Shown here piece after piece: positions 4,993 through 10,828 of a DNA stretch of 30,307 bases. The number at the start of each line of letters is the position of its first letter. The first letter of the stretch is position 1. The DNA lies in IMG/VR virus record IMGVR_UViG_3300035661_000253, positions 1 through 30,307 of that record. One strand, given 5' to 3'. A model generated the notes under the pieces. The model ran no database searches and was not told where the DNA came from. It saw nothing but the letters and a program-made list of their open reading frames with translations. The translations under genes were made by a program, and so were the position numbers. The DNA comes from a virus.

Positions 4993-7355
4993 ACTGCTCC
5001 GGCTGCAATCTCTTGCTGTGCCTGCGCCAACCATGCAGGGTCCACCTTCCAGTTCACCTCGATACCACGCACTGAGCGGTTGTACTTCCACACGGGCTTG
5101 AGGTGCAAGCGATGGTGCTTCAACGTGCTGGTCAGCTTGTTGGGGCTGGTTGGCATGTTACCCACGGTGTACTCGAAGATCGTGTACAGCTCGTCGCGCG
5201 TCAGTTTGTCGTGGGCGCTGATGTCACTGACTATGTTCACGATCAGATCGCGATACCCTTGTGCCTTGGCTTGGATCAGGGCGTTGCCGGGAGTCAATGA
5301 CTTCTGGCTTGGCAAGTGGTCCCAGAGAGTCTGGAGATCACCTTTGAGTAACGCATCACTGACCGTATCGATCGCAGTACGGCTGATGTCGATCAAAGTG
5401 CTACGAGACGTCGAGATCAGCGGTGTGCGGGCGCGGTCAGGGTCTGCTGGGTAGTGCATCAAGAATGCGTAGAAGTCGGGCAGCTCTTTCTCGATCTGGT
5501 CAATCTCGTGGCTAGTGATCTGCAGCTTGTTTTCTTGGTAAGCACCCACGTTGAAACGACGATCGTCGGGTGCCACTTCGACTGAGCTAGGCTTGTTCGA
5601 CGCGAAGATCATCGAAGTGAAGTTCGGAGCGATGTACGCAGGGCGATACATGTTCCGAATGCTGATCATGGGCTCCACGATCAGGTTCTTCAGTTTGGCG
5701 GTGACCTTGGTGTGGTACAGCGATTTGCCAGCCTCGATCTCGTCGATGAAGACGATGAACTTGTTCTCCATGAACTCAGTGAACTGTGACTCCAGCTCTT
5801 CCATCCGTTTAGCGGCTACGTTCTCATAGCCGAAGAGCGGAGTGAGGATGTTGTGCATGAGCAAGCCCTTGCCGGTGCCTTGTGTGCCTTGCAGCACCCA
5901 TGCTGTACCGGCACGAGTTTTGTACTGCACGATCACAGCCAGCCAGTTGTAGAAGTGGTCGAGCGTGGCTTTGTCGTTTCCTAGCACGTGGTCGATGATC
6001 TTGTTGACTACGCTGGGGGGTGAGGCGACATAGGGCGGTGTCGGGTTCTTCATCAGCTCGGATGGGTTGTAGATGTTCACCGTTTGAGCTTGACGATCGA
6101 TCACGTTCGGGTTGTTGGGCTCGAACACGCGCTTCCAATCGGGGATGGACTCTCCGAGTGGCATCTTGTTGTTCTTCATGAAGTGGCGCAGTTGTGTCTC
6201 GGACTTGGCTGGGTACAGTTCCAACTTGTCGGTGCTGGTGTCGTAGATGCCATTCCAGTACACACCGGATGTGAACTCGCGAAAGGCGAGGTAGATCCGG
6301 CCGTTGGCATCAGGAGCACCGGACGCAGCTTGTTGGGTCAGCTTGGCCCAGTATTGCGGCAGCAGATCCTGCGTCTTGTACGCGGGCTCGCCTTTGAAGT
6401 TGTAGATGAACTCAGGGCTCTCTACAGGATGGTAGTAGGCCCATGAATCTCCGCCGTTCAGGTTGAAGTAGACGAACCCACGTTCTTCCTTCATGTCGGT
6501 GATTGTGGCTTGGCCCGGATTGGCCATGTACTCAACCGTGCCGTCGAACTTGTACTTCACGGCTTTCATCTTGGGTAAGCCTGCTGCGACACGAAGTTCG
6601 GAGACCTTCGCATGGGTGCGATCGCGTAGCGCTTCCTGAAGGATCAGGTTGGTCGGTAGCGTTAGCTTCTTGTGAACACGCTGTTCGAACGAGATTCGTG
6701 GGATGGCGGGTTTGCCGCGCGTGCCCTTGTCCGGAAACGGGTCGGCGATACCCTTGCCGAGGACAGGTGGGGCGATGTACAGCAGCTTGTCGTTCTGACA
6801 TGTGGTGATGTCAAGAGGCCAGCGCAGCGAGTTGCCGGTCTTGGTGAGTTGAAGCTGACCGCTCAGAGTAGGGCGGCTCAGGTTCAGATCTTGGAGCCAG
6901 TTCTTCAGTTGCTGAGGACGTACGGCTTTGTCCAGCTGCATGAAGATATGGCAGCGGAAACCAGCCTTGTTCTCGATGCCCATGGACGAGGACCACTGAA
7001 GGATGTAGTCAGTCTCTGCGCATCCGATGTCGGACAGGAAATGGTCCACGGATTGATAGCCCTCGATGCCGTCGAGGTCGAGACAGATCCACTCAGTCAG
7101 ATCTTCGCTGTTGGTCGCACCTTTGCGGGATTCAGCGACCAGCTGGCGTCCAAGCTTACCCTTGACCATGCAGTCACCACGTGCAGCGTACTTCTGGATG
7201 TGTCCGTAGAGGTCGTAGAGCGTGTGGCAGGTCTCTTGGCTCGAAGTGACCTCGTACACAAAGGGATAGGGATGCTTGACCAGTTCGTTGTTCACGAGCT
7301 CGTAGCGCTTGACGATCGGCCTGTCTGCGGTTAGGAAGAAGACATCGAAACTCAT
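4989..7355 (-). CDS. Replicative primase(-polymerase)/helicase, NrS-1-like
   Basis: A 788-residue fusion. The N-terminal third has features of an archaeo-eukaryotic primase: CLDLDG with the metal-binding DxD (93-95), GFRCHIFM with a conserved His (136), and SLRWPLD (177-182). The C-terminal half is a superfamily 3-like helicase of the DUF5906/NrS-1 polymerase type: Walker A GTQGTGKG (490-497), Walker B FIVFIDEIE (533-541), sensor Asn in SMIFASNKP (587) and an arginine-finger candidate DDRR (597-600). A C-terminal region of about 120 residues may be a winged-helix or DNA-binding lid. The start at 7355 is set by an ATGA overlap with the upstream XRE gene; longer in-frame starts lie inside that gene. 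It probably initiates or drives phage DNA replication. Polymerase activity is inferred from family resemblance. Confidence 0.88.
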   Translation of the reverse strand: MSFDVFFLTADRPIVKRYELVNNELVKHPYPFVYEVTSSQETCHTLYDLYGHIQKYAARGDCMVKGKLGRQLVAESRKGATNSEDLTEWICLDLDGIEGYQSVDHFLSDIGCAETDYILQWSSSMGIENKAGFRCHIFMQLDKAVRPQQLKNWLQDLNLSRPTLSGQLQLTKTGNSLRWPLDITTCQNDKLLYIAPPVLGKGIADPFPDKGTRGKPAIPRISFEQRVHKKLTLPTNLILQEALRDRTHAKVSELRVAAGLPKMKAVKYKFDGTVEYMANPGQATITDMKEERGFVYFNLNGGDSWAYYHPVESPEFIYNFKGEPAYKTQDLLPQYWAKLTQQAASGAPDANGRIYLAFREFTSGVYWNGIYDTSTDKLELYPAKSETQLRHFMKNNKMPLGESIPDWKRVFEPNNPNVIDRQAQTVNIYNPSELMKNPTPPYVASPPSVVNKIIDHVLGNDKATLDHFYNWLAVIVQYKTRAGTAWVLQGTQGTGKGLLMHNILTPLFGYENVAAKRMEELESQFTEFMENKFIVFIDEIEAGKSLYHTKVTAKLKNLIVEPMISIRNMYRPAYIAPNFTSMIFASNKPSSVEVAPDDRRFNVGAYQENKLQITSHEIDQIEKELPDFYAFLMHYPADPDRARTPLISTSRSTLIDISRTAIDTVSDALLKGDLQTLWDHLPSQKSLTPGNALIQAKAQGYRDLIVNIVSDISAHDKLTRDELYTIFEYTVGNMPTSPNKLTSTLKHHRLHLKPVWKYNRSVRGIEVNWKVDPAWLAQAQQEIAAGAV

Positions 7356-7579
7356 GTTTGTGGTACTTCGAAGATCAGTTGTTGGACCTCGACATTGAGG
7401 GCTTGGGCCAGCGCACACATTGTGGAGAGACGAGGGTCTCGGGTCTTGCCTGCCTCGATGAGCAAGACGTTTCTTGCGCTCAGCCCGGTGCGGTCTGCCA
7501 GTCCACGATAGGACAGACCCATGCGTTCGCGTAGCATGCGAACCATCAGGCCGTTGAACTTGAATTGACGTGCTTTCAT
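7352..7579 (-). CDS. XRE-family helix-turn-helix regulator (second of tandem pair)
   Basis: A 75-residue protein that is almost entirely one HTH_3/Cro-C1 domain: LRERMGLSYRGLADRTGLSA (helices 1-2), recognition helix around ARNVLLIEAGKT, then the RLSTMCALAQALNVEVQQLI tail. It is basic at the N-terminus. The start overlaps the TGA of the first XRE gene and its own stop overlaps the primase start (both ATGA), so the three are translationally coupled. It lacks any C-terminal peptidase or dimerisation domain, so it would not be RecA-cleavable like lambda CI. It may act as a Cro-like repressor, possibly as a heterodimer with its neighbour. Confidence 0.85.
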   Translation of the reverse strand: MKARQFKFNGLMVRMLRERMGLSYRGLADRTGLSARNVLLIEAGKTRDPRLSTMCALAQALNVEVQQLIFEVPQT

Positions 7580-7827
7580 TTGGTGGCCGTGATGAGGAGC
7601 TTGCAGATGGCGTCGTTGGCCGGTTGCTTGGCGGGTGGTTCGAGGAGATCACGGTAGTCGACGTGGAACACATCAGCTACGGCAAGCAACGTTTCGAGGG
7701 TGGGAGTGTGCCCACGCTCGATGGCTGTGATGGTTGAGAGCGAGACCTTGGCGTTGTGTGCGAGTTCAAGCTGGGTGAAGTTGAAGCGTTCGCGGAGCTT
7801 ACGAATGATGCCTTGTCTGAGGATCAT
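7576..7827 (-). CDS. XRE-family helix-turn-helix regulator (first gene of early operon)
   Basis: An 83-residue protein with an HTH_3 domain: IIRKLRERFNFTQLELAHNA, KVSLSTITAIERGHTPTLET, LLAVADVFHVDYRDLL, then a short unique tail. The start at 7827 has AGGA 6-7 nt upstream; a GTG five codons earlier is less likely. Together with the next gene it looks like a diverged duplication (same core pattern RKLRER...ERGxT...LLAVADVF). It is the first gene of the leftward operon, and the inverted repeat at 7863-7889 lies directly upstream with a further half-site over its ribosome binding site, so autoregulation is likely. Confidence 0.85.
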   Translation of the reverse strand: MILRQGIIRKLRERFNFTQLELAHNAKVSLSTITAIERGHTPTLETLLAVADVFHVDYRDLLEPPAKQPANDAICKLLITATK

Positions 7828-7835
7828 GACGGTTC

Positions 7836-7889
7836 CTAGCACGTAGAAAAATGGAACTGAAATTCTAGCACAAAATCTGGGTGCTAGAA
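7836..7889 (-). promoter_or_regulatory. Operator and candidate leftward early promoter
   Basis: TTCTAGCAC (7863-7871) and GTGCTAGAA (7881-7889) form a perfect 9-bp inverted repeat around a 9-nt spacer. A third copy of the half-site, CTAGCAC (7836-7842), overlaps the ribosome binding site of the first XRE gene. On the minus strand TAGAAT (7867-7862), overlapping the left arm, matches a sigma-70 -10 box at five of six positions. A weak -35 (TTTCTA) lies 17 nt upstream. A repressor bound to the repeat would cover this promoter. The repeat is seen; the binder (the XRE pair) is inferred. Confidence 0.6.
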
Positions 7890-9521: not shown

Positions 9522-9817
9522 TTCAGTTCGTCCTCGCGAAGCTTCAACTGCCAGATCCGGCCCTTGAAGTATTGTTTGTTCTTGATGTAGCCGAACGCAT
9601 AACGCGCGACTGACGTGAATCCTGAGCACATGAGCCCAGCGACCGCAGCAGCCATCACACCGCTGAACGTCCCGTAGTGCATGATGTACGCAAGCACGGA
9701 GACGCTTAAATCCAAGGCCAATGGATGGCCTAGCAGCTTTAACGAGATGTGTCTCGGGAGCTTGATGCCTAGCAACAGCATCCCGAGAAATATGATGACG
9801 CCGCTCTCAACAATCAT
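9518..9817 (-). CDS. Small membrane protein, 99 aa
   Basis: A 99-residue protein with a hydrophobic N-terminal segment (about 5-18), a longer hydrophobic region (about 36-72, room for two helices), and a basic C-terminus (YIKNKQYFKGRIWQLKLRED) that would face the cytoplasm. The start overlaps the upstream gene by 11 nt and the stop overlaps the next start. It resembles a holin-like or inner-membrane phage protein, but a separate holin sits in the lysis cassette at 21421, so holin is not the preferred call. Confidence 0.6.
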   Translation of the reverse strand: MIVESGVIIFLGMLLLGIKLPRHISLKLLGHPLALDLSVSVLAYIMHYGTFSGVMAAAVAGLMCSGFTSVARYAFGYIKNKQYFKGRIWQLKLREDELK

Positions 9818-10181
9818 CGTCGTCCTCTACCAAGTCACTGAGTGCTTCGGCAAACTCTTCGATGTACAACTGAAGCTTAGGATCAGCATTGACCTCGTCC
9901 ATCGTTTCCATCAGCGCATCGAATTCCAGTTTCAGCGCCGGACCGTAGTGCTTAGTCACTGCTTTCGCAGCCGCGATGAACTGAAGCAGCGGTTCTGGGT
10001 CCTGCTCGGTCTTGTCGATGATCGCAATAGCGCAGCTACGGTAGAACGCAAGACCCAGCGGTATGGTTTTGCGTGCCTGATATTCCACGACGTCGAGATA
10101 CCTAGCGACCGTCTTCCGCGCCTTACGCGCTTTGTGCTTAGCAACGAAGTTGGTGACGCACGAGGTAACGAATTCAAACAT
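9807..10181 (-). CDS. Hypothetical protein, 124 aa, with duplicated structured leader
   Basis: A 124-residue helical protein with a basic N-terminal third (AKHKARKARKTVARYLDVVE) and a very acidic C-terminus (EEFAEALSDLVEDDDD). No known family. The start at 10181 has AAGGAG 9 nt upstream; that Shine-Dalgarno lies in the 3' arm of a conserved leader hairpin. The longer reading to 10256 crosses the leader and is rejected. Confidence 0.65.
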   Translation of the reverse strand: MFEFVTSCVTNFVAKHKARKARKTVARYLDVVEYQARKTIPLGLAFYRSCAIAIIDKTEQDPEPLLQFIAAAKAVTKHYGPALKLEFDALMETMDEVNADPKLQLYIEEFAEALSDLVEDDDDC

Positions 10182-10186
10182 TTCAA

Positions 10187-10246
10187 GATCTCCTTCAAAC
10201 TGAGCAACATCGCTCAAAACACAAAGGGCCTGCGTGCGAAGCACGC
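10187..10246 (-). promoter_or_regulatory. Leader element B: two hairpins, second hides the Shine-Dalgarno
   Basis: Read on the minus strand: hairpin 1 is GCGTGC, TTC loop, GCACGC (10246-10232). It is followed by GCCCTTTG. Hairpin 2 has an apical stem TTGAGC with GCTCAG and an outer stem CCTTTG with TGAAGG that includes part of the AAGGAG Shine-Dalgarno of the 124-residue gene. It matches leader A (10527-10583) in order, spacing and linker. Confidence 0.55.
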
Positions 10247-10256
10247 AAGCCGCCAA

Positions 10257-10520
10257 TCACGCAACTTGTCTGTGAACGTACGTGTTCCAGCCCGTACGTA
10301 TCTTTGCCCAGCGCGTACCATCGCGCTTCGTGTACTCGGACACGGTTTGTCCGACACCCTGCGGCTGCGCACGCGGATCCAAGCGCTGCGCACGCAGTTC
10401 TTCGAGCTGCGTGAGCAGCTCACCGTGCTTAGCACATAGATCCCAAAGCTGCTTGTCCAGATCTGCGCACTTCGTACGCAGCTCTTCGTTTTCCTTCTCA
10501 AGTTCCTCAAGCCGAATCAT
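10257..10520 (-). CDS. Coiled-coil protein, 87 aa, first gene of accessory operon
   Basis: An 87-residue protein. Residues 1-45 (RLEELEKENEELRTKCADLD, then KQLWDLCAKHGELLTQLEEL) have clear heptads of a coiled coil. The C-terminal part is basic with a conserved-looking TKRDGTRWAKIRTGWNTYV stretch that could bind nucleic acid. AAAGGAG stands 5 nt upstream of the ATG and is embedded in the leader A hairpin. It is probably a dimer. Family unknown. Confidence 0.7.
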   Translation of the reverse strand: MIRLEELEKENEELRTKCADLDKQLWDLCAKHGELLTQLEELRAQRLDPRAQPQGVGQTVSEYTKRDGTRWAKIRTGWNTYVHRQVA

Positions 10521-10526
10521 TTACAA

Positions 10527-10583
10527 CTCCTTTGCAAGCGAGCGAAATCGCTCACAAGCAAAGGGCAAGCACGCGAAGCGTGC
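10527..10583 (-). promoter_or_regulatory. Leader element A: two hairpins, second hides the Shine-Dalgarno
   Basis: Read on the minus strand: hairpin 1 is GCACGC, TTC loop, GCGTGC (10583-10569). The linker is TTGCCCTTTG. Hairpin 2 pairs CCTTTGC (10564-10558) with GCAAAGG (10535-10529), has a symmetric TT/TT internal loop, then GTGAGCG (10555-10549) with CGCTCGC (10544-10538) and an ATTT loop. The 3' arm contains most of the AAAGGAG Shine-Dalgarno of the 87-residue gene. In hairpin 1 the third and fourth pairs differ from leader B by compensating changes (A-U to G-C, C-G to U-A), which supports a real RNA structure. Confidence 0.6.
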
Positions 10584-10640
10584 AAAAAATCAAAAGCCGC
10601 CGAGGTAGGAGTTCCAAGACACTCCTTTCCCAGCGGCGGC
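10583..10640 (-). terminator. Nested hairpin with U-rich tail: terminator or attenuator on the minus strand
   Basis: GCCGCCG (10596-10602) pairs with CGGCGGC (10634-10640), enclosing AGGAGT (10607-10612) paired with ACTCCT (10621-10626). On the minus strand the hairpin is followed by TTTTGATTTTTT (10595-10584). It lies directly upstream of leader A, so it would stop leftward transcripts before the accessory operon unless read through. No clear promoter was found between it and leader A, which favours an attenuator role. Confidence 0.5.
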
Positions 10641-10790
10641 GAACCGAAACCGAAGCCACCCCTCGCCGAGGGGCGAAGGGGGGAGGGGGTGTCACTCGGT
10701 AACATAGCCCCTCGCACCATGTTTTTTGGCCCCCTGCTATCAAAACCGAAGTGCCCCCACCCCCTGTTTTCAGTCCCGAGCCCCAAAAAA
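10641..10790. other. GC-tract-rich non-coding junction upstream of the terminase
   Basis: No gene was found here. It contains a hairpin CCCCTC with GAGGGG (10659-10673), a purine tract of G runs (about 10668-10689) and, on the minus strand, four G runs within 10754-10784 with loops of 1, 10 and 3 nt. The strong strand asymmetry and the position between divergent blocks, next to terS, would suit a packaging or replication signal, but nothing specific identifies it. Confidence 0.35.
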
Positions 10791-10819
10791 TTGCGCCAAA
10801 ATTTTCCTAGGACTACAAT
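10791..10819 (+). promoter_or_regulatory. Candidate sigma-70 promoter for the terminase genes
   Basis: TTGCGC (10791-10796), a 17-nt spacer and TACAAT (10814-10819). The -10 box matches at five of six positions and the -35 at three. The expected start of transcription is about 10826, only a few bases before the terS ATG at 10829, where no Shine-Dalgarno exists. Confidence 0.55.
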
Positions 10820-10828
10820 CGATATCAA

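What the first reader, a model, noticed from the sequence alone, without database searches (positions are those of the whole stretch)
10187..10583. Twin RNA leaders that appear to hide the ribosome binding site of two accessory genes
The genes at 10257-10520 and 9807-10181 each carry the same 5' module on the minus strand. It consists of a TTC-capped 6-bp hairpin, a GCCCTTTG linker, a GAGC-type apical hairpin, then AAGGAG. In both, CCTTTG of the linker can pair with the strand containing the Shine-Dalgarno (7 perfect pairs in A; 6 with two wobbles in B). Hairpin 1 differs between copies by compensating changes at two pairs. The conserved order, the covariation and the Shine-Dalgarno occlusion together suggest a cis-acting translational switch, such as a thermosensor, a protein-binding autoregulatory site or a small-RNA target. 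I know of no described family that matches.
Basis: partly seen in the sequence, partly recalled or inferred. Interest (0 to 1): 0.72.

Follow-up and report, generated by a model that had tools for sequence, protein, structure and literature searches.

The report
Twin hairpin leaders of phage genes
A bacterial virus carries the same small two-hairpin element in front of its first two early genes; related viruses have it too, often in front of unrelated genes, so it is probably a real control element of the messenger RNA, but the idea that it generally hides the ribosome binding site is not borne out.

Summary
On the minus strand, genes A (10257-10520) and B (9807-10181) each follow a 47-nt module: a TTC-capped hairpin, GCCCTTTG, then a GAGC/GCTC hairpin. 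A covariance model finds only these two copies in the window. Outside its training set it finds it only at the start of the leftward early operon in relatives of the same phage clade (L008b, L078, L032b, L033). Both hairpins covary (5 of 11 pairs changed on both sides; 0 of 500 shuffles reach the score) and the second tolerates G-U, as expected of RNA. The genes behind it are often unrelated, so gene-specific autoregulation is unlikely.

Shine-Dalgarno occlusion is strong in copy A (7 bp) and kept by a compensatory change in its ortholog L008a (CCGTTG/CAACGG). It is weak in B and absent in L018b, L078a and others. It is not above dinucleotide-shuffled leaders (combined p=0.09), and matched linker/SD pairs do not beat mismatched ones over all leaders (p=0.34). 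No Rfam family matches; the layout differs from HK022 put. A DNA-hairpin (N4-type) promoter is unlikely: no virion or T7-type RNA polymerase domain is detected in relatives. Best reading: a new clade-specific structured leader RNA of early genes; the switch remains unproven.

The parts
10538..10584 (-). copy A of the two-hairpin module (hairpin 1 + GCCC linker + hairpin 2)
   Evidence: covariance model hit 61.6 bits, E 9e-15 in the window (part of the training set); fold z -3.0
10569..10583 (-). hairpin 1 of A: GCACGC-TTC-GCGTGC
10559..10566 (-). linker GCCCTTTG of A; CCTTTGC (10564-10558) pairs with GCAAAGG (10535-10529)
10538..10555 (-). hairpin 2 of A: GTGAGCG-ATTT-CGCTCGC
10527..10535 (-). 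SD region of A, GCAAAGGAG, predicted paired with the linker
10257..10520 (-). gene A, 87 aa, coiled-coil-like small protein
   Evidence: orthologs L008a (E 1e-11) and, through L008a, L011 (E 3e-5)
10200..10247 (-). copy B of the module
   Evidence: covariance model hit 65.3 bits, E 1e-15 in the window (part of the training set)
10231..10247 (-). hairpin 1 of B: TGCGTGC-TTC-GCACGCA
10222..10229 (-). linker GCCCTTTG of B
10200..10217 (-). hairpin 2 of B: TTGAGCG-ATGT-TGCTCAG
10190..10198 (-). SD region of B, TTGAAGGAG, weak pairing with the linker
9807..10181 (-). gene B, 124 aa, unknown
10584..10640 (-). terminator-like hairpin GCCGCCG...CGGCGGC followed by TTTTGATTTTTT, directly upstream of copy A
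   Evidence: sequence; fold -27.3 kcal/mol

Best explanation
The module is a structured RNA element made as part of the early leftward transcript of this phage clade. It sits in the 5' leader of the first early gene, next to a probable genome end, and in copy B just after the gene A stop codon. Its conserved parts are two short hairpins at a nearly fixed distance, a C(UNC)G cap on hairpin 1, a GCCC linker and, in part of the family, a purine-AU hexaloop on hairpin 2. I think it acts post-transcriptionally on whichever gene follows, setting translation and/or stability of that stretch of mRNA, possibly as a landing site for a phage or host RNA-binding factor that acts on both copies. In gene A, and probably its ortholog L008a, the linker also zips up the Shine-Dalgarno, which would keep translation low until something opens it. 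Shown: the structure, conservation, covariation, position, portability, and the A-type SD pairing as a prediction. Inferred: that it acts as RNA, that it affects translation or stability, and any trans-acting factor.
For: Covariation in both helices: 96% of cells paired, 5 of 11 pairs changed on both sides, covariation score 0.463 against 0.182 in shuffles, 0/500 reaching it, and at most 0.143 when the partners are slid. U-A/U-G variation at a hairpin 2 pair and G-C/G-U/A-U at the apical pair fit RNA of the coding strand. The model, built from 7 copies, also finds L008b (E 9e-8), L078 (4e-4), L032b (0.011) and L033 (0.014) at leftward early-gene leaders, and nothing convincing in 0.84 Mb of more distant relatives and prophages. 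Each copy lies upstream of a start codon, save the upstream member of the tandem pair in L018. A, L008a and L011 are orthologous; the other downstream proteins (B, L012, L013, L018b, L033, L078a) show no or only marginal similarity to them or each other. SD pairing with the linker in A, B, L008a and L039a: 0.76, 0.69, 0.65, 0.83. Against 200 other starts in the same or related loci, SDs here are paired upstream more often (0.56 vs 0.28, p 1e-4).
Against: The excess of SD pairing disappears against dinucleotide-shuffled leaders, so it may follow from pyrimidine-rich linker composition. No transcript, promoter or binding factor is known. Hairpin 1 alone could act as DNA. Only about 8 genomes carry clear copies, and the first copies were collected with a search that asked for a perfect TTC-type stem, which inflates hairpin 1 conservation.
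Confidence: 0.5

Rival explanations
1. Shine-Dalgarno-occluding translational switch in both copies: linker CCTTTG pairs with the SD and a signal (heat, protein or small RNA) releases it.
For: 7-bp pairing in A, 6 with wobbles in B; compensating change in the ortholog L008a (CCGTTG/CAACGG) and different but complementary strands in L039a and L019; p=0.025 for matched versus mismatched linker/SD in the GCCC subset.
Against: Not conserved: L018b, L008b, L032a, L035, L078a lack it; p=0.34 over all leaders; no excess over shuffled leaders.
Confidence: 0.22
2. Antitermination or transcription-elongation element of the early transcript, in the manner of HK022 put: the two hairpins bind RNA polymerase and let it pass terminators downstream.
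For: Two-hairpin RNA at the start of an early operon; a terminator-like site at 8396-8365 lies downstream on the same strand before the HTH and primase genes.
Against: putRNA is about 70 nt with two long, bulged stems that meet at one point (PMC9378689); this module is 47 nt with two short stems separated by a 14-15 nt single strand. Copies sit next to SDs, one right after a stop codon.
Confidence: 0.1
3. DNA-hairpin promoter: hairpin 1 extrudes on the template strand as d(GCGNAGC), as at phage N4 virion RNA polymerase promoters, with transcription starting near the GCCC.
For: C(TNC)G cap constant in coding orientation (CTTCG 15 of 128 triloop hairpins in leftward leaders, next best 4), i.e. 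template GNA; N4 P2 has GC-TCC-GC; about 10-11 nt from loop centre to the G of GCCC is close to the N4 spacing (centre at -11, PMC4496689); position at the early end of the genome as in N4.
Against: No N4 virion RNA polymerase catalytic domain in any of the non-N4 records searched, the apparently complete 63.8-kb relative G004 included; only weak N-terminal hits in giant virion proteins; no T7-type polymerase in the 24 non-N4 records tested; no motif B in the G004 giant protein; a covarying hairpin 2 with G-U pairs is not needed for a promoter.
Confidence: 0.06
4. mRNA-stabilising or processing hairpins only (RNase barrier or cleavage punctuation between early genes), with no regulation.
For: Stems vary freely while caps and spacing stay; tandem copies and intercistronic position.
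Against: Would not demand a conserved GCCC linker and hairpin 2 loop.
Confidence: 0.12

Closest known systems
SD-occluding translational operators and riboregulators of phage mRNAs (e.g. those of phage T4; review PMC3014915, abstract seen only)
   Same: hairpin leader directly before the SD of an early gene; in copy A the SD is in a helix
   Different: occlusion is not conserved in the family; module precedes unrelated genes; no binding protein known
HK022 put antiterminator RNA
   Same: two-hairpin RNA near the start of early phage transcripts
   Different: 47 nt against about 70; short bulge-free stems separated by 14-15 nt; sits at SDs; tandem or repeated per gene (compared with PMC9378689)
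Phage N4 virion RNA polymerase promoters
   Same: short stem with template-strand C(GNA)G triloop, near the early end of the genome, similar distance to a possible start
   Different: no virion RNA polymerase detected in relatives; second covarying hairpin with G-U pairs; conserved GCCC

Membership tests
SD-occluding translational switch | SD of the regulated gene paired with an upstream leader strand | tested here: inconclusive
   linker-SD pairing strong in A, B, L008a, L039a, L019, L032b by probability (B with few and wobble pairs), absent in L018b, L008b, L078a
SD-occluding translational switch | pairing conserved through compensating changes in relatives | tested here: inconclusive
   A/L008a compensation; p=0.34 over all leaders, 0.025 in the GCCC subset; no excess over shuffles
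SD-occluding translational switch | a signal that opens the helix and changes expression | not testable with these tools
   needs a reporter experiment
HK022 put RNA | two long bulged stems that meet at a bifurcation, about 70 nt | tested here: not met
   short regular stems, 14-15 nt linker against the description
HK022 put RNA | suppresses termination via the RNA polymerase beta' zinc-binding domain | not testable with these tools
   needs a transcription assay
N4-type DNA-hairpin promoter | template-strand hairpin, 5-7 bp, GNA triloop with C-G closing pair | tested here: met
   hairpin 1 in A, B and relatives; some relatives have longer stems
N4-type DNA-hairpin promoter | phage encodes a virion RNA polymerase | tested here: not met
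   phrog_2206 catalytic part and PF00940 absent from the relatives searched, including a 63.8-kb record whose ends overlap; the window itself is a fragment
described RNA family in Rfam 15 | match at gathering score | tested here: not met
   no matches at gathering score; only chance miRNA matches at relaxed threshold

The most novel reading that the evidence does not exclude
A phage clade outside the N4 group uses template-strand d(GCGNAGC) DNA hairpins as early promoters for a still unrecognised RNA polymerase entering with the genome, the GCCC linker being the transcript start and hairpin 2 its 5' stem.
Probability: 0.05. Interest if true: 0.75.

Novelty: new member of a known kind. Interest (0 to 1): 0.36.

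Why it matters
It adds a previously undescribed, covariation-supported structured leader RNA to the short list of cis-acting RNAs known from phage early operons, and shows a module reused in front of unrelated early genes. If it controls translation or stability it would be a portable part with a defined boundary (47 nt) that can be tested with simple reporters.

Tried and rejected
Close relatives by gene A or B protein gave only one near-identical contig and one coiled-coil chance hit. blastn against phage records: no match. N4-type promoter idea: followed because of the GNA loop, not supported by polymerase searches. SD occlusion as general rule: not supported; note that alone would have suggested it (p 1e-4), the shuffle control removed it. 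Repressor operator: considered because stems are identical within some genomes (L039, L018, L113), but stems differ between copies in the window and in L032 and the loop orientation is constant, so unlikely. Sigma-70 promoter inside the module: none found; the only leftward sigma-70-like site near gene A is weak, at 10828-10801. Intrinsic terminator reading of hairpin 1: B scores as terminator-like and L078 has a 14-bp stem with TTTTTG, but the CCC after the stem in most copies makes a poor U-tract. Patterns for the whole module in IMG/VR found no members outside the clade.

Full report
What is in the sequence. The window is a 30,307-base IMG/VR virus record with terminase, P22-type portal and an early region on the minus strand. 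Upstream of gene A (10257-10520) and gene B (9807-10181), on the minus strand, lie two copies of one module: hairpin 1 capped by TTC, GCCCTTTG, hairpin 2 with GAGC/GCTC, then AAGGAG and ATG. Copy A folds better than all 200 shuffles (z -3.0); copy B is weaker (z -1.84).

Relatives. Gene A and B proteins have almost no close relatives, so I used the large terminase, which brought in 45 and then 80 viral loci and 80 bacterial-genome loci. The module recurs at the leftward early genes next to the terminase in L008 (two copies), L012, L013/L048, L018 (two in tandem before one gene) and L032, with looser forms in L011, L033, L039 and L078. Scans of the whole viral collection with three patterns found it only in this clade.

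Is it a real structure? On seven copies 96% of paired cells are standard pairs, five of eleven pairs change on both sides, and no shuffle of 500 reaches the covariation score; sliding the partners destroys it. A covariance model built from these finds four further leaders (L008b, L078, L032b, L033) and nothing convincing in distant relatives. Hairpin 2 varies as GAGC/GCTC, GTTC/GAAC, GGTGA/TCACC, GTGTC/GACAC, AGGC/GCCT, with G-U pairs allowed, as expected of RNA with the coding sequence. One caution: the first collection of copies asked for perfect TTC-type stems, so the perfection of hairpin 1 is partly selected. An unbiased count of triloops in leaders still gives CTTCG 15 times out of 128 on the leftward strand, the next most common 4.

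Does it hide the Shine-Dalgarno? In A yes by prediction, and in its ortholog L008a the linker and SD strand have both changed so that they still pair (CCTTTG/CAAAGG against CCGTTG/CAACGG). But L018b, L008b, L032a, L035 and L078a do not pair there. Across 20 leaders the linker of a leader pairs no better with its own SD region than with those of others (p=0.34; 0.025 in the GCCC subset, chosen after the fact). SDs of these leaders are more often paired upstream than those of 200 other starts in the same or related loci (p 1e-4), but not more than in leaders with dinucleotide-shuffled upstream sequence (combined p 0.09). So occlusion is plausible for gene A and unproven as the function of the module.

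What follows the module. The proteins encoded behind the module are mostly not related to each other: A, L008a and L011 form one family and L008b and L032b a weak second, while B, L012, L013, L018b, L033 and L078a stand alone or nearly so. A leader kept while the gene is exchanged speaks for a general expression role and against autoregulation by the encoded protein.

Promoter idea. The constant C(TNC)G cap means C(GNA)G on the template strand, the hairpin class read by the N4 virion RNA polymerase (PMC4496689; N4 P2 hairpin seen), and the distance to GCCC resembles the N4 start. I tested for the polymerase: no catalytic virion RNA polymerase domain in any of the non-N4 records searched, and no T7-type polymerase in the 24 non-N4 records tested for it; the 63.8-kb relative G004, whose record ends overlap, lacks both; only the N-terminal part of giant virion proteins matches weakly, and the G004 giant protein has no polymerase motif B. 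I keep it as an unlikely but interesting reading.

Context. Upstream of copy A lie a terminator-like hairpin (10640-10584) and a conserved CTTCGG(A/T)TTCGGTT element with a partly palindromic motif found in 14 relatives; one contig ends exactly in that motif and G004 has overlapping ends there, so this is a candidate packaging site and the module sits at a genome end. The leftward promoter was not identified.

Verdict. A genuine, clade-restricted, covarying two-hairpin leader module without Rfam match; probably a cis-acting RNA of early mRNAs.

Noticed in passing
window 10616-10655 (minus-strand sense): Conserved element CTTCGG[AT]TTCGGTT followed by an AAGGAGTCTCTT-like, partly palindromic motif in 14 loci including the window (perfect palindromes GTAAGGGATCCCTTAC in L032, TGGGGCCCCA in L039); contig L034/L099 starts exactly at AAGAGACTCCTT and the ends of the 63.8-kb record G004 overlap here: candidate cos/packaging site.
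   Followed up: partly
window about 10790-10820, plus strand: Candidate rightward promoter TTGCGC-17-TACAAT before the small terminase gene; the stretch is also present in L006 and L007.
   Followed up: no
window 7352-7842, minus strand: Two adjacent small helix-turn-helix (Cro/CI-like by eye) regulators in overlapping frames before the primase/helicase-like gene; suggests a lysogeny or early switch.
   Followed up: no
G004:26000-37000 (L063 1048-7527 minus), phiA008 45222-51374: Giant virion proteins of about 2,050-2,160 aa with weak similarity only to the N-terminal part of the N4 virion RNA polymerase family (phrog_2206), no catalytic part.
   Followed up: partly
L113 about 2045 and 1397 (minus): Two early genes each preceded by a near-identical block of about 70 nt: terminator-like hairpin CCAATAGCCG...CGGCTATTGGTTTT, then AAAGAC-TTC-GTCTTT; a parallel case of twin leaders with different sequence.
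   Followed up: partly
L053 (KPP25) 17112 and 17413: Two 9-bp hairpins with TCC loop (GGA on the other strand) in intergenic stretches around the divergent region; similar in form to N4 P2.
   Followed up: no
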